From a virus: a stretch of DNA of 24,666 nucleotides. Below the pieces are notes generated by a model. The model was not told the DNA's origin. It made no database searches and was given only the letters and a program-made list of their open reading frames with translations. Made by a program: the position numbers and the translations under genes. Location: the IMG/VR virus record IMGVR_UViG_3300044623_000458, positions 1-24,666 of that record, one strand, 5' to 3'. Position 1 is the first letter of the stretch, and each line of letters opens with the position of its first letter. Positions 5,208 through 24,378 of this stretch are shown piece after piece.

Positions 5208-5236
5208 TTGACAAATAATCAAAGGTGTAGTATAAT
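5208..5236 (+). promoter_or_regulatory. Perfect-consensus promoter of the tRNA-array leader
   Basis: TTGACA (5208-5213), a 17-nt spacer and TATAAT (5231-5236) match the sigma-70 consensus at all twelve positions. Transcription should begin around 5243, which is also the A of the leader ORF's ATG. It drives the attenuator-like leader and, on read-through, the tRNA array. Confidence 0.93.
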
Positions 5237-5476: not shown

Positions 5477-5550
5477 TGGGGATTAGTTAAGTGGTATAAC
5501 ATCGGATTTTGATTCCGAGATTACAAGTTCGATTCTTGTATCCCCTGCCA
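5477..5550 (+). tRNA. tRNA-Gln (TTG)
   Basis: Loop TTTTGAT on a TCGGA/TCCGA stem gives anticodon TTG, reading CAA and CAG. The first acceptor pair is an open T1-T72; a weak 1-72 pair is a known glutamine identity feature. Discriminator G, encoded CCA. It is the first tRNA after the terminator. Confidence 0.95.
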
Positions 5551-5616
5551 AACAAATGCGCACTCTAACTCAAAAGGTGACTAGTGGGCTCATGTCCATG
5601 TAGTGCGCATCTGTTT
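5551..5616 (+). ncRNA. Structured element between tRNA-Gln and tRNA-Lys
   Basis: The 66 nt fill exactly the space between two tRNAs. ATGCGCACT (5556-5564) pairs perfectly with AGTGCGCAT (5602-5610), and AACA (5551-5554) with TGTT (5612-5615) after one mismatch, so the ends are clamped. No T-loop or anticodon arm is seen, so it is not a tRNA. tRNA processing at both sides would release it as a discrete hairpin RNA. Function unknown. Confidence 0.55.
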
Positions 5617-5690
5617 GGGAGTATAACTTAGTGGTAAAGTAGTAGGCTTTTAACCTATTAACCAGAGTTCAATTCTCTGTGCTCCTACCA
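5617..5690 (+). tRNA. tRNA-Lys (TTT)
   Basis: Loop CTTTTAA on a GTAGG/CCTAT stem gives anticodon TTT for AAA and AAG. Acceptor GGGAGTA pairs with TGCTCCT, including a G1-T72 wobble seen in several tRNAs of this array. Discriminator A, encoded CCA. Confidence 0.95.
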
Positions 5691-5695
5691 ATTAT

Positions 5696-5770
5696 GGTGT
5701 TGTTAGTTTAGTGGTAAAACTACGGATTGTGATTCCGTCATCATGAGTTCAATTCTCATACGACACCCCA
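5696..5770 (+). tRNA. tRNA-His (GTG)
   Basis: Loop TTGTGAT gives anticodon GTG. The acceptor has eight pairs because of the extra G at -1 facing C73, the histidine identity element, so the gene starts at the G of 5696. Encoded CCA. Confidence 0.96.
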
Positions 5771-5780
5771 AAGAATACTT

Positions 5781-5856
5781 GCTGCTTTAGCTGATGTGGT
5801 CATAGCAGGGGATTGAAGATCCTCGGAAAGTAGTTCGATTCTACTAGGCAGCACCA
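5781..5856 (+). tRNA. tRNA-Phe (GAA)
   Basis: Acceptor GCTGCTT pairs with AGGCAGC. Loop TTGAAGA on GGGGA/TCCTC gives anticodon GAA for UUU and UUC. The T arm is AGTAG-TTCGATT-CTACT. Discriminator A, encoded CCA. Confidence 0.96.
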
Positions 5857-5863
5857 AGATTAT

Positions 5864-5938
5864 TGCCAATTAGCTCAGAGGTAGAGCAATCGCTTGATAA
5901 GCGATAGGTGAGTGGATCGTTACCACTATTGGCAACCA
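5864..5938 (+). tRNA. tRNA-Ile (GAT)
   Basis: Acceptor TGCCAAT pairs with ATTGGCA. Loop TTGATAA on ATCGC/GCGAT gives anticodon GAT for AUU and AUC. The T loop reads ATCGTTA, not TTCGATT, a departure from the rest of the array. Discriminator A, encoded CCA. Confidence 0.94.
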
Positions 5939-5945
5939 AAGTTAT

Positions 5946-6037
5946 GGAAGATAATGCAGCGGGGTTGGTCCTGCGACCAGCCTTGAAAACTGGGTTCTGA
6001 GAAATCGGATGGGGTTCGACTCCTCTGTCTTCCGCCA
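5946..6037 (+). tRNA. tRNA-Ser (TGA)
   Basis: This 92-nt class II tRNA has a long variable arm. Acceptor GGAAGAT pairs with GTCTTCC. Loop CTTGAAA gives anticodon TGA, reading the UCN box. Discriminator G is normal for serine. Encoded CCA. Confidence 0.95.
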
Positions 6038-6045
6038 TATTATGT

Positions 6046-6120
6046 GCCTCGTTATTTCAGTGGTAGAATGTCTCCTTTACACGGAGAAGGTCGGCAGTTC
6101 GAATCTGTCACGAGGTACCA
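6046..6120 (+). tRNA. tRNA-Val (TAC)
   Basis: Loop TTTACAC on TCTCC/GGAGA gives anticodon TAC for the GUN box. Acceptor GCCTCGT pairs with ACGAGGT with a G1-T72 wobble. Discriminator A, encoded CCA. Confidence 0.95.
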
Positions 6121-6126
6121 AGTTTT

Positions 6127-6201
6127 GCGTCATTAGTTCAACGGATAGAATTAGAGTCTTCGAAACTCAGGATGGTGGTTCGATTCCATCATGGCGCACC
6201 A
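6127..6201 (+). tRNA. tRNA-Arg (TCG)
   Basis: Loop CTTCGAA gives anticodon TCG for the CGN box. The anticodon stem AGAGT/ACTCA has one outer A-A mismatch. Acceptor GCGTCAT pairs with ATGGCGC. Discriminator A, encoded CCA. The next coding gene starts 19 nt later. Confidence 0.94.
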
Positions 6202-6219
6202 AAATATAAGGAGAATGTT

Positions 6220-6393
6220 ATGGATGATTTAGTTTATCGTTTACAAAAGCGTGCTGAAATTCGTAGACAAATACAAAGTAGAAAATCTGTTCAAGAAGGT
6301 AAGCCTGATAGAATATCGGATTTGCTAGAAGAAGCAGCAAATAGGATTAAAGAATTGGAAGATGCGTTGCAAGGTGCGACAGAAGTTTGCTAA
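6220..6393 (+). CDS. Small coiled-coil protein (57 aa) overlapping tRNA-Ser(GCT)
   Basis: The ATG at 6220 follows AAGGAG with good spacing. The 57-residue product is highly charged and probably helical: RLQKRAEIRRQIQSRK near the start and DLLEEAANRIKELEDAL near residues 35-51, a pattern common in small phage proteins of unknown function. Its last 37 nt are also the 5' half of tRNA-Ser(GCT), and the TAA stop lies in the anticodon loop of that tRNA. The good ribosome-binding site argues that it is real; the dual use of its 3' end is unusual. No function is inferred. Confidence 0.7.
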   Translation: MDDLVYRLQKRAEIRRQIQSRKSVQEGKPDRISDLLEEAANRIKELEDALQGATEVC

Positions 6394-6443
6394 ACTTCCG
6401 TTCAGAAATGGGCTGACAGGTTCGATTCCTGTATCTTCCGCCA
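6357..6443 (+). tRNA. tRNA-Ser (GCT) overlapping a CDS
   Basis: Acceptor GGAAGAT pairs with ATCTTCC. Loop TTGCTAA on a GAAGT/ACTTC stem gives anticodon GCT for AGU and AGC. A long variable arm makes it class II (87 nt). Discriminator G, encoded CCA. Its 5' half is embedded in the 3' end of the 57-aa gene. Confidence 0.93.
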
Positions 6444-6448
6444 AACAT

Positions 6449-6523
6449 GGGCTGGTAGCTTAATGGTAAAGCAGTGAACTCATAATTCATTGAGTCTGTG
6501 TTCAATTCACAGTCAGCCCACCA
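6449..6523 (+). tRNA. tRNA with CAT anticodon (elongator Met or Ile2)
   Basis: Acceptor GGGCTGG pairs with TCAGCCC, so it is an elongator type. Loop CTCATAA on GTGAA/TTCAT gives anticodon CAT. It could be elongator methionine, or isoleucine-2 if a host TilS converts C34 to lysidine; sequence alone does not settle this. A second elongator CAT tRNA lies at 7862. Discriminator A, encoded CCA. Confidence 0.92.
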
Positions 6524-6552
6524 TTGACTTGCAAGATTGTTTGATGTATAAT
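6524..6552 (+). promoter_or_regulatory. Internal promoter of the tRNA array
   Basis: TTGACT (6524-6529), 17-nt spacer, TATAAT (6547-6552). It begins at the base after tRNA CCA. The spacer holds CTTGCAAG, a palindrome also present in the promoter at 15543. Transcription should start just before tRNA-Leu at 6562. Confidence 0.9.
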
Positions 6553-6561
6553 AGAGTTATT

Positions 6562-6645
6562 GCGAGTGTGGTGGAATGGTATACACATCAGACTTAAAAT
6601 CTGACGCTTAATTGATTGAGGGTTCAAGTCCCTCCACTCGTACCA
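6562..6645 (+). tRNA. tRNA-Leu (TAA)
   Basis: This 84-nt class II tRNA has loop CTTAAAA on TCAGA/TCTGA, anticodon TAA for UUA and UUG. Acceptor GCGAGTG pairs with CACTCGT with a G1-T72 wobble. Discriminator A is a leucine identity base. Encoded CCA. Confidence 0.95.
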
Positions 6646-6647
6646 AT

Positions 6648-6722
6648 ACGGCATTCGTTCAACGGATAGGACATGGTTCTTCTAAAGCCAGAATGGTGGT
6701 TCGATTCCTCCATGCCGTGCCA
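6648..6722 (+). tRNA. tRNA-Arg (TCT)
   Basis: Loop CTTCTAA on TGGTT/AGCCA gives anticodon TCT for AGA and AGG. Acceptor ACGGCAT pairs perfectly with ATGCCGT. Discriminator G, encoded CCA. Confidence 0.95.
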
Positions 6723-6731
6723 GAGATAAAT

Positions 6732-6805
6732 GTAGGTGGAGCCAGTTGGACAGGCACTGGATTGCAACCCCATGGAAGTGAGTTCGATTCTCACCACCTA
6801 CTCCA
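6732..6805 (+). tRNA. tRNA-Cys (GCA)
   Basis: Acceptor GTAGGTG pairs perfectly with CACCTAC, and discriminator T73 is the cysteine identity base. The loop TTGCAAC gives anticodon GCA. The anticodon stem is poor (CTGGA against CCCAT, three pairs), so activity may be reduced. Encoded CCA. Confidence 0.88.
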
Positions 6806-6813
6806 GATAGTTG

Positions 6814-6842
6814 TTGACTTGTAAGAAGTTTTGATGTATAAT
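6814..6842 (+). promoter_or_regulatory. Second internal promoter of the tRNA array
   Basis: TTGACT (6814-6819), 17-nt spacer, TATAAT (6837-6842). The sequence from -35 to -10 closely copies the promoter at 6524. It lies just ahead of a non-tRNA structured stretch. Confidence 0.9.
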
Positions 6843-6848
6843 AGTTGT

Positions 6849-6976
6849 TCTTCAAAAGTCCACTCTAAATCTGCGGTAAATACGCAGTGTGTGGCAGGGA
6901 TGGCTTGATTGTTGCAACTCGCCTACAATCTCCCATGCAAGCAAGTTTGGTAGTTCTTGATAAAAACTACCACTAT
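6849..6976 (+). ncRNA. Structured element between the 6814 promoter and tRNA-Glu
   Basis: About 128 nt without a tRNA or convincing ORF. Visible hairpins are CTGCG/CGCAG (6871-6875 with 6883-6887, 7-nt loop), GCTT plus GATTGT (6903-6912) with ACAATC (6925-6930) and AAGC (6939-6942), and TGGTAGTT/AACTACCA (6948-6955 with 6965-6972). It would be the 5' end of the transcript from the 6814 promoter. Function unknown. Confidence 0.5.
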
Positions 6977-7051
6977 GCACTGTTCGTCTATCGGTTAGGA
7001 CATGCGGTTTTCATCCGCATAAGAGGAGTTCGATTCTCCTACAGTGTACCA
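6977..7051 (+). tRNA. tRNA-Glu (TTC)
   Basis: Loop TTTTCAT on TGCGG/CCGCA gives anticodon TTC for GAA and GAG. Acceptor GCACTGT pairs with ACAGTGT with a G1-T72 wobble. Discriminator A, encoded CCA. Confidence 0.95.
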
Positions 7052-7052
7052 G

Positions 7053-7279
7053 ATTTAATTACATTGGTTACCAAGCCAGTAGGTAATTCAGATAGTGAGT
7101 AACCAGTTGACGGACTGGCACTTCTGAGTTACACGAAAGATGGAAATCAGCATAGGCTTCGATCAGTAGTCACGCTGGAACAACTTGGAATGTAATGTGT
7201 GCGACAGACAAGTCCATGGACGGCATGGTAGGGCAGGTTCAAAACTGTTTATTCTGTCAAACACCCAGTGTAATTAAAT
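7053..7279 (+). ncRNA. 227-nt structured RNA closed by a 14-bp stem
   Basis: ATTTAATTACATTG (7053-7066) pairs with CAGTGTAATTAAAT (7266-7279) over 14 bp with one T-G wobble. The element begins two bases after tRNA-Glu. Inside are GGTTAC (7066-7071) with GTAACC (7099-7104), GCCAGT (7075-7080) with ACTGGC (7114-7119), which crosses the former as a possible pseudoknot, GACAGA/TCTGTC (7203-7208 with 7253-7258) and CCATG/CATGG (7214-7218 with 7224-7228). No tRNA, tmRNA, RNase P or group I intron core could be recognised. Confidence 0.55.
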
Positions 7280-7280
7280 G

Positions 7281-7433
7281 TGGTATTAGTTTAGTGTTAT
7301 CAAGGTATGTGGTCTGATCAATCACTACTCGACAGTAAGGGTGCGACCGACACTGTCTGATATAACTGTTATTCGCTTGTCAGTGCTAGCTACATTGTTG
7401 ACAAATTGGCACGATAACACTAAACTAATATCA
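7281..7433 (+). ncRNA. 153-nt cloverleaf-like RNA closed by a 21-bp stem
   Basis: Bases 7281-7301 pair with 7413-7433 over 21 consecutive pairs with one G-T wobble. Three hairpins lie inside: GTGGT/ATCAC (7309-7313 with 7321-7325, 7-nt loop), GACAGT/ACTGTC (7331-7336 with 7352-7357) and TTGTCA/TGACAA (7377-7382 with 7399-7404). This is a four-way-junction layout. The 5' arm contains TTAGTTTAGTG, identical to the D-arm region of tRNA-His at 5696, so it may derive from a tRNA. The element ends two bases before tRNA-Tyr. Function unknown; the long duplex is a likely RNase III substrate. Confidence 0.6.
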
Positions 7434-7435
7434 TT

Positions 7436-7528
7436 GGAGCAATTGATGCTATGGCGTGTGCATCCTCAGACTGTAAATCTGATCCCTCTGGGTAAACAAT
7501 CTTGGTTCGACTCCAAGTTGCTCCACCA
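7436..7528 (+). tRNA. tRNA-Tyr (GTA)
   Basis: This 93-nt class II tRNA has acceptor GGAGCAA pairing perfectly with TTGCTCC. Loop CTGTAAA on TCAGA/TCTGA gives anticodon GTA. Discriminator A, encoded CCA. Confidence 0.95.
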
Positions 7529-7535
7529 GTTTTTA

Positions 7536-7610
7536 GGCTCGTTAGTATAATGGTCATTACAGCGGATTGTCTATCCGCTTATGGGAGTTCGATTCTCCCA
7601 CGAGTCGCCA
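7536..7610 (+). tRNA. tRNA-Asp (GTC)
   Basis: Loop TTGTCTA on a GCGGA/TCCGC stem gives anticodon GTC. Acceptor GGCTCGT pairs with ACGAGTC with one wobble. Discriminator G is the aspartate identity base. Encoded CCA. Confidence 0.95.
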
Positions 7611-7613
7611 AGT

Positions 7614-7687
7614 TTTGTGGTAAGGAAAGCAAAAGGAGAATGGGCAAGTTGGGGTGCATCCTGACTAGATACCTCACCTGCCACAAA
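7614..7687 (+). ncRNA. Structured element between tRNA-Asp and the initiator tRNA
   Basis: TTTGTGG (7614-7620) pairs with CCACAAA (7681-7687). AGG at 7623-7625 can continue the stem with CCT at 7677-7679. Inside, TGGGGTG (7650-7656) pairs with TACCTCA (7670-7676) with two wobbles. No tRNA features are present. It starts four bases after tRNA-Asp and ends eight bases before the next tRNA. Confidence 0.45.
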
Positions 7688-7695
7688 TTTATTAT

Positions 7696-7772
7696 CGCAG
7701 TGTATGGAAGTGGTCATCCGTCTGGTCTCATAAGCCATGAAATCGTTGGTTCGAATCCAACCACTGCAACCA
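7696..7772 (+). tRNA. Initiator-type tRNA-fMet (CAT)
   Basis: Acceptor CGCAGTG faces CACTGCA, leaving the C1-A72 mismatch that marks bacterial initiator tRNAs and allows formylation. The D stem has G11-C24, the purine-pyrimidine orientation of initiators. Loop CTCATAA gives anticodon CAT, and the length is 77 nt as in E. coli. The three G-C pairs below the anticodon are only partly kept: G29-C41 and G30-C40, then T31-G39. Discriminator A, encoded CCA. Confidence 0.9.
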
Positions 7773-7775
7773 AAT

Positions 7776-7859
7776 GCGCAAGTGGTGGAATGGTATACAT
7801 GCGAGTCTTAGAAACTCGTGCCGAAAGGATTGAGAGTTCGAGTCTCTCCTTGCGCACCA
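7776..7859 (+). tRNA. tRNA-Leu (TAG)
   Basis: This 84-nt class II tRNA has acceptor GCGCAAG pairing perfectly with CTTGCGC. Loop CTTAGAA on CGAGT/ACTCG gives anticodon TAG for the CUN box. Discriminator A, encoded CCA. Confidence 0.95.
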
Positions 7860-7861
7860 AT

Positions 7862-7936
7862 GGTGATGTAGCACAACGGTAGTGCAACTCCTTCATACGG
7901 AGTAGGTTAGTGGCTCGATTCCACTCATCACCACCA
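7862..7936 (+). tRNA. tRNA with CAT anticodon (elongator Met or Ile2)
   Basis: Acceptor GGTGATG pairs perfectly with CATCACC. Loop TTCATAC on ACTCC/GGAGT gives anticodon CAT. With the CAT tRNA at 6449 it probably makes a pair, one reading AUG and the other AUA after lysidine modification; which is which is undecided. T loop CTCGATT is atypical at its first base. Encoded CCA. Confidence 0.92.
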
Positions 7937-7943
7937 AAGTTTT

Positions 7944-8017
7944 CTCGGGTTAGTTTAATGGTAAAATTCGTGCTTTGGGAGCATGTGTCGGAAGTTCGAT
8001 TCTTCCACTCGAGACCA
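7944..8017 (+). tRNA. tRNA-Pro (TGG)
   Basis: Loop TTTGGGA on CGTGC/GCATG gives anticodon TGG for the CCN box. Acceptor CTCGGGT pairs with ACTCGAG; C1-G72 with discriminator A fits bacterial proline tRNAs. Encoded CCA. Confidence 0.95.
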
Positions 8018-8033
8018 AGATAAGTAGAAATGT

Positions 8034-8687
8034 ATGAAACGAATGGCATTATACTTGCATCATCCTGAGTGCTCAGAAGACTGTGCATTTGCGATGGTAC
8101 ATTCGTTATCGTCAGAGTATCAGATAAGAATTTTTACTGAGAAGGAATTAGATGATGATAATTTCTTTGACAATATTGACATTATTGCTTTTCCTGGTGG
8201 TATTGGTGATAGCGACAGTTATCCTAATTTCTTCACTAGAACAAGAGCGAATCGAATCGCCAGATTCTTGGATGGTGGTGGTCACTATCTTGGCATCTGC
8301 ATGGGTGCTTATTGGGCTGGAAGCAGGTATTTCGATATACTTACTGATGTCAGTCCAGTTCAGTACATAAAGAGACCAAATGCCACTGTTCGTAGAAGTT
8401 ATGGAACAGTGACTGAGATAGAATGGAATGACACAAAAGAACAAATGTACTTTTATGATGGTTGTGCACTAATTGGTGAAGAAGATAAATTCAAAACAAT
8501 CGCACGATATGCCAATGGTGATCCAATGGCAATCATACAAGGAAGAATAGGATTGATAGGTTGCCATCCAGAAGCACCTTTGTATTGGTATGAGAAACCA
8601 TGGCAATACATAAACAAACATTGGAATGATGGAAGACATCATACATTGTTATTAGATTTTGTAAATGAGTTATGCCCTATTAGTTAA
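8034..8687 (+). CDS. Class I glutamine-amidotransferase-like protein (BPL_N type)
   Basis: This 217-residue protein has the flavodoxin-like GATase1 fold as found in the biotin-protein-ligase N-terminal family. The first strand MALYLHH is followed by IIAFPGGIGDSD (residues 50-61), the nucleophile elbow YLGICMGAYWAG with C89, and GCHPE with H178 and E180, completing a Cys-His-Glu triad. The substrate is unknown. It stands alone without an obvious synthetase partner. The ATG at 8034 has only a weak ribosome-binding site; the ATG at 8043 is an alternative. Its last 14 nt overlap tRNA-Thr. Lying inside the tRNA array, it might act on translation or amide chemistry, but this is only context. Confidence 0.8.
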   Translation: MKRMALYLHHPECSEDCAFAMVHSLSSEYQIRIFTEKELDDDNFFDNIDIIAFPGGIGDSDSYPNFFTRTRANRIARFLDGGGHYLGICMGAYWAGSRYFDILTDVSPVQYIKRPNATVRRSYGTVTEIEWNDTKEQMYFYDGCALIGEEDKFKTIARYANGDPMAIIQGRIGLIGCHPEAPLYWYEKPWQYINKHWNDGRHHTLLLDFVNELCPIS

Positions 8688-8747
8688 ATGGTAGAACACC
8701 TGTTTTGTAATCAGGTAATGGCAGTTCGATTCTGTCATGGGGCACCA
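8674..8747 (+). tRNA. tRNA-Thr (TGT)
   Basis: Acceptor GCCCTAT pairs with ATGGGGC with one wobble; G1-C72 and C2-G71 are threonine identity pairs. Loop TTTGTAA gives anticodon TGT for the ACN box; the anticodon stem has a T31-T39 mismatch. Discriminator A, encoded CCA. The first 14 nt overlap the upstream CDS end. Confidence 0.93.
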
Positions 8748-8780
8748 GATAAAATAACTAGGAGACAACTGTTGAGAAAC

Positions 8781-9017
8781 ATGAAAGGTAAGAAAGTTAA
8801 AGAATTTGGTAGTGTTGTTGTGGTTGAAGAAGGTAAGTTTGAGAAAGCATTCAGACAATTCAAAAAGAACATAGAAGAAAGTGGATTGTTAATGGATATC
8901 AGAGAAAGACAAGCATACATTAAACCAACCACGAAAAGAAAAATGGCAAAGAGTGCTGCAAAGAAACGCTGGAAGAAGAAACTAGCACAGCAGTCAATGC
9001 CTGATAGATTGTATTAA
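8781..9017 (+). CDS. rpsU: Ribosomal protein bS21 homologue
   Basis: The 78-residue basic protein matches bS21 across its length: VVVVEEGKFEKAFRQFKKNIEESG (first part at residues 12-20), then the helix with RERQAYIKPTTKRKMAK and a Lys/Arg-rich tail ending RLY as in the bacterial protein. bS21 sits on the 30S platform near the 3' end of 16S rRNA and helps mRNA selection at initiation. Phage-encoded bS21 genes are known from aquatic phages and can exchange with the host copy. GGAG at 8761-8764 is 16 nt before this ATG but 7 nt before an in-frame TTG at 8772, so the real start may be TTG, giving 81 aa. About 10 residues precede the usual bS21 N-terminus. Confidence 0.9.
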   Translation: MKGKKVKEFGSVVVVEEGKFEKAFRQFKKNIEESGLLMDIRERQAYIKPTTKRKMAKSAAKKRWKKKLAQQSMPDRLY

Positions 9018-9023
9018 GATTAT

Positions 9024-9099
9024 TCCGCAGTAGCTCAGTCGGTAGAGTAGATGACTGTTAATCATTTGGTCGGTGGTTCGAGCCCACCCTGTGGAGCCA
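9024..9099 (+). tRNA. tRNA-Asn (GTT)
   Basis: Loop CTGTTAA on GATGA/TCATT gives anticodon GTT. Acceptor TCCGCAG pairs with CTGTGGA with one wobble, and discriminator G fits asparagine. It starts 7 nt after the bS21 stop. Encoded CCA. Confidence 0.95.
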
Positions 9100-9104
9100 G
9101 TATT

Positions 9105-9179
9105 GGGGGATTAGTGATAATGGGAGCACATGTGCTTTGCAAGCATGAAGTGGGAGTTCGATCCTCCCATCCTCCACCA
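9105..9179 (+). tRNA. tRNA-Ala (TGC)
   Basis: Loop TTTGCAA on TGTGC/GCATG gives anticodon TGC for the GCN box. Acceptor GGGGGAT pairs with ATCCTCC; G3 faces T70, the G3-U70 wobble that defines alanine identity. Discriminator A, encoded CCA. Confidence 0.96.
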
Positions 9180-9181
9180 AT

Positions 9182-9255
9182 GCTCTGTTAGTTAAATGGT
9201 ATAACAGTTGATTAGTAATCATCAATTGGGAGTTCGATTCTCTCACGGAGCACCA
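9182..9255 (+). tRNA. tRNA-Thr (AGT), unusual anticodon
   Basis: Acceptor GCTCTGT pairs with ACGGAGC with one wobble; G1-C72 and C2-G71 fit threonine. The 7-nt loop TTAGTAA gives anticodon AGT, with a T28-T42 mismatch in the stem. A34 in a threonine tRNA is rare in bacteria. It resembles tRNA-Thr(TGT) at 8674 and may be a diverged copy. Discriminator A, encoded CCA. Confidence 0.85.
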
Positions 9256-9270
9256 AATTAGGAGTTAGTA

Positions 9271-9477
9271 ATGGCAATGAGTGATGGTGGTAAAGGTAGT
9301 AGTCCTAGACCATTCGCTATACCAAAGAATGAATTCGATGATAAGTTTGATACAATCTTTGGAGAGAAGCGAACATTCTGTGATGTATGTGGTAGAAAAT
9401 TCAGTTGGTGTTCGTGTAGAGCAGCACCAAAGGAAATGTGTGACGCTATTGATAAAGCGTTGGGTATAGAAAGATAA
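9271..9477 (+). CDS. Small zinc-ribbon-like phage protein (68 aa)
   Basis: The 68-residue protein starts MAMSDGGKGSSPRPF, a beginning seen in a widespread family of small phage proteins of unknown function. The C-terminal half holds FCDVCGRKFSWCSC with C37, C40, C47 and C49, spaced like a small zinc knuckle or ribbon. AGGAG precedes the ATG at 9271 at good distance. It lies between tRNA-Thr(AGT) and tRNA-Trp and must be made from the same transcript; tRNA-Trp begins one base after its stop codon. A nucleic-acid-binding role is possible but not shown. Confidence 0.8.
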   Translation: MAMSDGGKGSSPRPFAIPKNEFDDKFDTIFGEKRTFCDVCGRKFSWCSCRAAPKEMCDAIDKALGIER

Positions 9478-9478
9478 T

Positions 9479-9552
9479 GTCTCGATGGTGTAATGGCAGC
9501 ATAATGGTCTCCAAAACCATTGGTTGGGGTTCGAGTCCCTATCGGGACGCCA
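9479..9552 (+). tRNA. tRNA-Trp (CCA)
   Basis: Loop CTCCAAA on ATGGT/ACCAT gives anticodon CCA. Acceptor GTCTCGA pairs with TCGGGAC with one wobble, and discriminator G is the tryptophan identity base. Encoded CCA. Confidence 0.95.
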
Positions 9553-9555
9553 AGT

Positions 9556-9629
9556 GCGGGGTTAGTTTAATGGTAAAACTGTAGATTTCCAATCTTCCGT
9601 TGAGAGTTCGATTCTCTCACTCCGCTCCA
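9556..9629 (+). tRNA. tRNA-Gly (TCC)
   Basis: Loop TTTCCAA gives anticodon TCC, able to read GGN. Acceptor GCGGGGT pairs with ACTCCGC, and discriminator T is the bacterial glycine identity base. The anticodon stem has one T-T mismatch. Encoded CCA. Confidence 0.94.
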
Positions 9630-9648
9630 TTTAAGATAGAGGTGTATA

Positions 9649-10125
9649 ATGCGTAAAGATATTGACATTGATGAAGTGAAAGACTTTATCATGGCACAGA
9701 GTCCTGAATCAAAGATTTATATCGGTGGTGACTCTGAACGATTTAATATCGGAAATGAATTCTACGCTGATTACATCTTAGTGATTGTTGTTCATATCAA
9801 TGGTAATAATGGTTGTAAAATCTTCGGTGAAGTCTCTCGTGAGAGATGCTACGACCAGAAGAAAGATAAGCCAAGAATGCGATTGATGAATGAGGTTTAT
9901 AAGATTGCAGACCTATACCTAAAACTGCATGATGTGTTAGAGGACAGAGAAGTCCAAGTGCATCTGGATATTAACCCAGACGAAATGCATGGTTCATCTT
10001 GCGTAATCAACGAAGCAGTTGGTTACATTAAAGGTATGTGCAATGTAGTTCCATTCGTAAAGCCAAACGCATTTGCAGCATCCTACGCTGCAGACAGATA
10101 CAAGTCTTACATGCGTGCAGCATAA
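9649..10125 (+). CDS. YkuK-like RNase H-fold protein
   Basis: This 158-residue protein resembles the YkuK/DUF458 family, predicted to adopt the RNase H fold. The first strand KIYIGGDSE carries D28, the usual first acidic residue, and further conserved-looking acids are in VHLDINPDEMHGSS (D107, D111) and near the end in AADRY (D149). The family's biochemical activity is not established; a nuclease acting on RNA is a reasonable guess. GAGGT lies upstream of the ATG at 9649. It sits inside the tRNA array between the two tRNA-Gly genes, which would suit a role in RNA processing, but only by association. Confidence 0.8.
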   Translation: MRKDIDIDEVKDFIMAQSPESKIYIGGDSERFNIGNEFYADYILVIVVHINGNNGCKIFGEVSRERCYDQKKDKPRMRLMNEVYKIADLYLKLHDVLEDREVQVHLDINPDEMHGSSCVINEAVGYIKGMCNVVPFVKPNAFAASYAADRYKSYMRAA

Positions 10126-10126
10126 T

Positions 10127-10155
10127 TTGACATGCAGGGTTTATTATTGTATAAT
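10127..10155 (+). promoter_or_regulatory. Promoter of the last tRNA gene
   Basis: TTGACA (10127-10132), 17-nt spacer, TATAAT (10150-10155). Transcription should start near 10162, just before tRNA-Gly(GCC), and continue through the small basic protein to the terminator at 10469. Confidence 0.9.
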
Positions 10156-10168
10156 AAGTAGTAAGAGT

Positions 10169-10244
10169 GCGGGATTAGCTCAGTTGGTAGAGCGTAACTT
10201 TGCCAAAGTTAAGGTCGTCAGTTCGAACCTGATATCCCGCTCCA
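10169..10244 (+). tRNA. tRNA-Gly (GCC)
   Basis: Acceptor GCGGGAT pairs perfectly with ATCCCGC. Loop TTGCCAA on TAACT/AGTTA gives anticodon GCC for GGU and GGC. Discriminator T, encoded CCA. It is the best-paired tRNA of the set, with a classical D arm (AGCTCAGTTGGTAGAGC). Confidence 0.97.
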
Positions 10245-23570: not shown

Positions 23571-23687
23571 ATGTTAGATACTCTATTTTGGGTGGCACTT
23601 GGTGCATTTGTTGGATGGAATTTTCCACAACCTTTCTGGGCTAAGATTATACAAGAAAAAATTCAAACACTGATCGCTAAAAAGTAA
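23571..23687 (+). CDS. Small membrane protein after the endolysin (38 aa)
   Basis: AGGAG lies 9 nt before the ATG. Residues 4-17 (TLFWVALGAFVGWN) form one membrane segment, followed by an aromatic turn (FPQPFW) and a basic helix (IIQEKIQTLIAKK). The position after an endolysin and the size suggest a holin-like or lysis accessory role, but similar peptides are found in other contexts. Its stop overlaps the iscU start. Confidence 0.65.
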   Translation: MLDTLFWVALGAFVGWNFPQPFWAKIIQEKIQTLIAKK

Positions 23688-24070
23688 TGGCTTACTCCGA
23701 CAAAGTTCTTGATCACTACGAGAATCCAAGAAATGTGGGTTCTTTAGATAAAAACGATCTAACAGTCGGTACTGGAATGGTTGGTGCACCTGCATGCGGT
23801 GATGTGATGAAACTTCAAATTAAAGTTGAAGATGGAATAATCACCGATGCAAAATTTAAAACATACGGATGTGGCTCAGCAATTGCTTCTAGTTCACTTG
23901 TCACTGAATGGGTCAAAGGTAAAACTTTGGATCAAGCAATGGAGATTAAAAATTCTGCCATTGCAGAAGAACTTGCTCTACCACCAGTTAAAATTCACTG
24001 CTCCATACTTGCAGAAGATGCAATTCGTGCAGCAATCCACGACTATCAACTAAAGTGTTCATGCTCATGA
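23687..24070 (+). CDS. iscU: IscU-type Fe-S cluster scaffold protein
   Basis: The 127-residue protein is a complete IscU. The three cluster-ligand cysteines are C37 in APACGDV (with D39), C62 in YGCGSA and C105 in KIHCSILAED, with H104 beside the last. LPPVK (residues 98-102), the motif bound by the HscA chaperone, is intact, so it could work with host IscS and HscA/HscB. It would hold nascent [2Fe-2S] clusters for transfer to acceptors. The TAATG overlap couples it to the previous gene, and its stop overlaps the IscA-like start, making an Fe-S pair. Confidence 0.95.
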   Translation: MAYSDKVLDHYENPRNVGSLDKNDLTVGTGMVGAPACGDVMKLQIKVEDGIITDAKFKTYGCGSAIASSSLVTEWVKGKTLDQAMEIKNSAIAEELALPPVKIHCSILAEDAIRAAIHDYQLKCSCS

Positions 24071-24378
24071 TTACCGTAACAGAAACAGCAAAGAAACAAC
24101 TCGATGAGATCCTAATGGATGAACCGAATGGAAAATATGTAAGAGCATTTATCTCTGGAGGTGGATGCTCTGGTTTTAATTATGGATTTACTATTGAAGA
24201 GAACAAAGAAGAAGATGACTTCGTTATTGACAATCTTGTAGTGGATGTAATGAGTATGCAGTATTTTGAAAACGCTACTATAGATTTTACTAGTGATAAA
24301 TTAAAAGGATCTCAATTTGTTATATCAAACCCAAATGCCAAATCAACCTGCGGATGTGGAAGCAGTTTCTCAGTCTAA
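24067..24378 (+). CDS. iscA: IscA/HesB A-type Fe-S carrier
   Basis: The 103-residue protein carries the three invariant cysteines of A-type carriers: C34 in GGGCSGF and C95/C97 in STCGCGSSFSV. The ITVTETAKKQLDEIL start and SMQYFENATIDF core are typical. It accepts clusters from IscU and passes them to apo-proteins. The ATG at 24067 is chosen because it overlaps the iscU stop (ATGA); two more ATG/GTG codons lie a few codons upstream. The length is normal for the family. Confidence 0.94.
   Translation: MITVTETAKKQLDEILMDEPNGKYVRAFISGGGCSGFNYGFTIEENKEEDDFVIDNLVVDVMSMQYFENATIDFTSDKLKGSQFVISNPNAKSTCGCGSSFSV

What the first reader, a model, noticed from the sequence alone, without database searches (positions are those of the whole stretch)
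8772..9017. bS21 ribosomal protein inside the tRNA array
The basic 78- to 81-residue protein matches bS21 and sits between tRNA-Thr and tRNA-Asn. bS21 contacts the region near the anti-Shine-Dalgarno end of 16S rRNA, and phage copies are proposed to bias ribosomes towards phage mRNAs. Here it is co-located with an initiator tRNA and near predicted leaderless genes. The N-terminus carries an extra basic stretch, and the start may be TTG.
Basis: partly seen in the sequence, partly recalled or inferred. Interest (0 to 1): 0.78.

Follow-up and report, generated by a model that had tools for sequence, protein, structure and literature searches.

The report
Phage ribosomal protein among tRNA genes
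A bacterial virus carries its own copy of a small, exchangeable ribosome protein (bS21) wedged between transfer-RNA genes; such viral copies are already known and common, but here the gene is a fixed part of a nearly complete viral tRNA set that includes an initiator-like tRNA, which suggests a viral kit for taking over the host's protein factory.

Summary
Window 8772-9017 encodes an 81-aa bS21 (Pfam PF01165 E=1.2e-14; TIGR00030 above its cutoff) between tRNA-Thr and tRNA-Asn of a T4-like phage contig. The TTG start is supported: TTG and its AGGAG are conserved in relatives, the internal ATG is not. dN/dS (0.06-0.28) shows purifying selection. Viral bS21 is common (571 confirmed IMG/VR contigs in one capped scan), the proposed role is published (Mizuno 2019, Al-Shayeb 2020, Chen 2022), and tRNA-adjacent bS21 is published for phage Melnitz. 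Specific here: all 14 contigs of one clade have bS21 beside a tRNA, usually 15-24 nt after one and 4-9 nt before the next, against 2 of 78 other viral bS21 loci. The array (27 tRNAs, all 20 amino acids) includes an initiator-like tRNA (C1:A72) and sits behind consensus sigma-70 promoters with no T4-type late promoter, suggesting early expression. The 'leaderless genes' remark is not supported: nearly all array genes have Shine-Dalgarno sequences. Best reading: phage bS21 replaces host bS21 on 30S subunits; preference for phage mRNA is untested. New member of a known kind, in an unusual setting.

The parts
8772..9017 (+). bS21 (rpsU-like) coding sequence, 81 aa, TTG start, ends in RLY motif
8748..8771 (+). 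24-nt leader between tRNA-Thr CCA and TTG, containing AGGAG (8760-8764)
8674..8747 (+). tRNA-Thr(TGT) directly upstream
9024..9099 (+). tRNA-Asn(GTT), begins 6 nt after the bS21 stop codon
7696..7772 (+). initiator-like tRNA-Met(CAT): C1:A72 mismatch, G11:C24
   Evidence: 11:24 pair read by eye from the sequence
5477..10244 (+). tRNA array: 26 tRNAs by ARAGORN plus one missed tRNA-Ser; all 20 amino acids
5946..6037 (+). tRNA-Ser(TGA) missed by ARAGORN
   Evidence: anticodon read by eye
5208..5236 (+). perfect sigma-70 promoter consensus (12/12, 17-nt spacer) before the array
6524..6552 (+). sigma-70 promoter-like site inside the array (11/12)
6814..6842 (+). sigma-70 promoter-like site inside the array (11/12), nearest strong one upstream of bS21

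Best explanation
A functional phage bS21 that joins host 30S subunits in place of host bS21. Shown by sequence: family membership, the C-terminal rRNA-contact motif (RLY), purifying selection, and fixed placement beside tRNA genes in one phage clade. Inferred: it is transcribed early by host sigma-70 polymerase as part of the tRNA transcript; tRNA processing would release a short mRNA with a 24-nt SD leader; the protein would exchange onto ribosomes and act with the phage's initiator-like tRNA and near-complete tRNA set to keep or favour phage translation. Incorporation into ribosomes is known for another phage's bS21; I found no demonstration of preference for phage mRNA in the papers read.
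For: Family. Selection: dN/dS 0.06-0.28 in pairs with measurable non-zero values; no amino-acid changes but 2-7 silent ones among window, L001 and L002. tRNA-adjacent in 14/14 clade contigs vs 2/78 other viral loci (gaps). One supported clade, 99/87, inside a virus-only bS21 group, 100/97, relative to the bacterial sample used. RLY/KLY C-terminus in 8/13 clade members with a complete end; Watson 2020 (PMC7550191) shows RLY contacting 16S h37 and A1167 and finds RLY/KLY only in gamma-/betaproteobacteria among bacteria. Initiator-like tRNA C1:A72 in the window plus six relatives, directly after bS21 in L005, L011 and L015. Promoters: 3 perfect consensus sites vs 0.01 expected; no TATAAATA site in the window vs 1.7 expected. 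Mizuno 2019 (PMC6375957): phage HTVC008M bS21 incorporates into E. coli 70S ribosomes.
Against: No expression, proteomic or ribosome data for this phage. No promoter directly before bS21; the nearest strong one is about 1.9 kb upstream. In the Bacteroidetes phages bS21 is expressed late (Chen 2022, PMC9723584). E. coli ribosomes carrying viral bS21 were only about 5% active in vitro (Mizuno 2019), which could mean inhibition rather than help. Host unknown: best bacterial matches are only 41-50% identical. The model's fold gave no PDB hit, uninformative for so small a helical protein.
Confidence: 0.7

Rival explanations
1. Host shut-off factor: phage bS21 enters ribosomes and lowers host translation rather than selecting phage mRNA.
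For: E. coli ribosomes carrying HTVC008M bS21 were about 5% active in vitro (PMC6375957); sigma-70-type promoters suggest early expression, suited to shut-off.
Against: That test used a mismatched host; the phage must translate on the same ribosomes; its genes use ordinary SD sequences.
Confidence: 0.12
2. Simple back-up supply: phage bS21 and tRNAs replace host parts that run down or are attacked after host DNA breakdown, with no mRNA preference.
For: Near-complete tRNA set and initiator-like tRNA look like self-sufficiency; bS21 is a loosely bound, exchangeable protein (PMC6375957).
Against: Ribosomal proteins are usually stable; why only bS21 would need replacing is unexplained. This is a variant of the best explanation (replacement without selectivity) and sequence alone cannot separate the two.
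Confidence: 0.3
3. Passenger gene: bS21 was carried into the tRNA array by recombination and has no translation role there.
For: tRNA arrays collect small genes (several small ORFs in this array).
Against: Purifying selection, conserved TTG/SD and retention across the whole clade while neighbouring tRNAs are reshuffled.
Confidence: 0.04

Closest known systems
Methylophilales phage Melnitz EXVC044M rpsU (PMC9004378)
   Same: T4-like myovirus; bS21 starts 13 nt after a tRNA-Arg gene; the paper notes the adjacency and suggests a translation role
   Different: Only 4 tRNAs in the genome; bS21 36% identical and lacking the KPT motif; followed by a protein gene, not a tRNA
Pelagibacter phage HTVC008M bS21 (PMC6375957)
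   Same: T4-like phage bS21; shown to enter E. coli ribosomes
   Different: No tRNA annotated within 3 kb; SAR11 host
bS21 of freshwater Bacteroidetes phages (PMC9723584)
   Same: Phage bS21 proposed to redirect initiation
   Different: Beside structural genes on the opposite strand and expressed late; Bacteroidetes hosts mostly lack SD use
Huge-phage rpS21 with basic N-terminal extensions (PMC7162821)
   Same: Same proposed role; basic N-terminal extension
   Different: No tRNA-array setting described in the passages read
Pseudomonas phage PA5oct group
   Same: Cultured phages with both bS21 and an initiator-like C1:A72 tRNA-Met
   Different: The two genes are 99 kb apart; bS21 sits by Clp genes

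Membership tests
bS21 (PF01165 / TIGR00030) | profile score above curated cutoff | tested here: met
   54.2 vs 27 bits; 53.6 vs 28.95
bS21 (PF01165 / TIGR00030) | helical fold | tested here: inconclusive
   AlphaFold2 model: helices 23-37, 39-47 and 52-74, pLDDT 83, pTM 0.48; Foldseek gave no hits
bS21 (PF01165 / TIGR00030) | RLY/KLY C-terminal contact motif (gamma-/betaproteobacterial bS21) | tested here: met
   ends PDRLY; motif from PMC7550191
bS21 (PF01165 / TIGR00030) | incorporation into the 30S subunit | not testable with these tools
   needs ribosome mass spectrometry
bacterial initiator tRNA | unpaired 1:72 position | tested here: met
   C1:A72
bacterial initiator tRNA | three G-C pairs in the anticodon stem (29-31:39-41) | tested here: not met
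   two G-C plus U31:G39; hence called initiator-like only
bacterial initiator tRNA | purine 11 : pyrimidine 24 | tested here: met
   G11:C24, read by eye from the sequence

The most novel reading that the evidence does not exclude
This phage clade carries one early-expressed translation kit: a tRNA set able to read all sense codons, an initiator-like tRNA, and bS21 whose mRNA is cut out of the tRNA transcript by tRNA processing and held at a set level by a conserved weak TTG start, together switching ribosomes to phage initiation.
Probability: 0.25. Interest if true: 0.65.

Novelty: new member of a known kind. Interest (0 to 1): 0.42.

Why it matters
Phage bS21 is common in aquatic viruses, yet its benefit is unproven. 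A clade in which bS21, an initiator-like tRNA and a near-complete tRNA set share one conserved locus gives a sharper hypothesis (takeover of initiation plus decoding) that can be tested. It also differs from the late-expressed Bacteroidetes phage bS21 in predicted timing.

Tried and rejected
ATG 8781 as the start: rejected, not conserved and 16 nt from the SD. Leaderless translation in the array: not supported. RNA structure in the bS21 leader: none beyond chance, z=0.37. T4-type late promoter TATAAATA: none in the window. Fold search in PDB: no hit, uninformative. Host by bS21 similarity: unresolved; the first genome scan found nothing, the second gave 41-50% matches to Burkholderiales and Gammaproteobacteria from a capped, pattern-limited sample. 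Stop-codon recoding in relative L013, prompted by its CTA-anticodon tRNA: no sign in the stretches read.

Full report
Observation. The ORF 8772-9017 (+) encodes 81 aa and matches bS21 in Pfam, NCBIfam, PHROGs and PDB sequences, well above curated cutoffs. It lies between tRNA-Thr(TGT) and tRNA-Asn(GTT). The window is a 24.7-kb IMG/VR virus record with T4-like genes (T4 RNase H, PhoH).

Start codon. AGGAG at 8760-8764 is 7 nt from TTG 8772 and 16 nt from ATG 8781. In L003, L004 and L009 the TTG and SD are kept while the ATG is lost. Across the clade TTG is the likely start in 8 of 14 bS21 genes, GTG in L005, ATG in four, and ATG or TTG in L002. Other strong-SD genes in these loci nearly all use ATG (101 ATG, 9 GTG and 15 TTG candidates, most of the non-bS21 TTGs apparently spurious). 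This choice of start rests on a simple SD scan and conservation, not on protein data.

Selection. Pairwise dN/dS is 0.06-0.28 where measurable and non-zero, so the protein is maintained.

Genomic setting. IMG/VR scans gave 13 close relatives and 78 other viral bS21 loci. All 14 clade members (window included) have a tRNA next to bS21: leaders of 15-24 nt after the upstream tRNA in 13 (L005 has a longer gap), and 4-9 nt from stop to the next tRNA in most. L001 appears to have an Asn tRNA there that ARAGORN did not call, L002 has a longer gap, and L006 ends at the contig edge. Of the other 78 loci only L168 and L169 have a tRNA within 300 nt, though some have short flanks. The tRNA-array bS21s form one clade (99/87) nested in a virus-only group (100/97); the bacterial comparison set was limited to proteobacterial hits and the tree rests on 74 columns. 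The association apparently arose once in this clade and persisted while the neighbouring tRNAs changed (Thr, Leu or Thr-AGT upstream; Asn or initiator-like Met downstream).

The tRNA array. ARAGORN finds 26 tRNAs; cmscan adds a tRNA-Ser(TGA) at 5946-6037. Together they cover all 20 amino acids; with U34 reading of four-codon boxes every sense codon can be read (plus the added Ser tRNA; inference). tRNA-Met 7696-7772 has the C1:A72 mismatch of bacterial initiators but only two of the three anticodon-stem G-C pairs. A C1:A72 tRNA-Met follows bS21 by 4-5 nt in L005, L011 and L015.

Expression. Three perfect TTGACA-17-TATAAT sites occur in the window against 0.01 expected, one just before the array (5208), and 11/12 sites lie within it (6524, 6814). 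No T4-type late promoter TATAAATA is found. This argues for early transcription by host polymerase, unlike the late expression reported for Bacteroidetes phage bS21 (PMC9723584). These are consensus matches only. The tight tRNA-bS21-tRNA spacing would let tRNA processing cut out a mini-mRNA of about 276 nt that keeps its SD (inference).

Mechanism. Most likely the protein replaces host bS21 on 30S subunits: bS21 is loosely bound and exchangeable, and HTVC008M bS21 entered E. coli ribosomes (PMC6375957). The RLY end matches the motif that touches 16S h37/A1167 and that among bacteria is confined to gamma-/betaproteobacterial bS21 (PMC7550191), which hints at such a host. Whether the result is phage mRNA preference, shut-off or back-up supply is open.

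Comparison and novelty. Viral bS21, its N-terminal extensions and the hijack model are published (PMC6375957; PMC7162821; PMC9723584). bS21 beside a tRNA is published for Melnitz (PMC9004378). Within the papers searched I found no report of bS21 inside a large phage tRNA array with an initiator-like tRNA; that search was limited to open-access text. I therefore file it as a new member of a known kind in an unusual setting.

Noticed in passing
window 5946-6037: tRNA-Ser(TGA) missed by ARAGORN; with it the array holds 27 tRNAs for all 20 amino acids.
   Followed up: partly
window 9182-9255; same gene in most clade loci: tRNA-Thr with AGT anticodon (A34), unusual in bacteria outside tRNA-Arg; L010, L013 and L014 also have tRNA-Ser(AGA).
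   Followed up: no
L013 8963-9038: tRNA with CTA anticodon (amber-suppressor type) on a 160-kb relative; no sign of TAG recoding in the stretches read.
   Followed up: partly
window 6449-6523: tRNA(CAT) at the array position held by tRNA-Ile(TAT) in L003/L004, so probably a lysidine-type tRNA-Ile2.
   Followed up: no
window 8034-8687: BPL_N / class-I glutamine-amidotransferase-like gene just upstream of tRNA-Thr and bS21; a matching stretch lies upstream of bS21 in L003.
   Followed up: no
window 23687-24378: NifU-like and A-type Fe-S assembly genes side by side in a phage.
   Followed up: no
L008 5406-6637 (Vibrio phage 2.275.O): IF-3, bS21 and an L7/L12-like gene in a row, another kind of phage translation cluster.
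   Followed up: no
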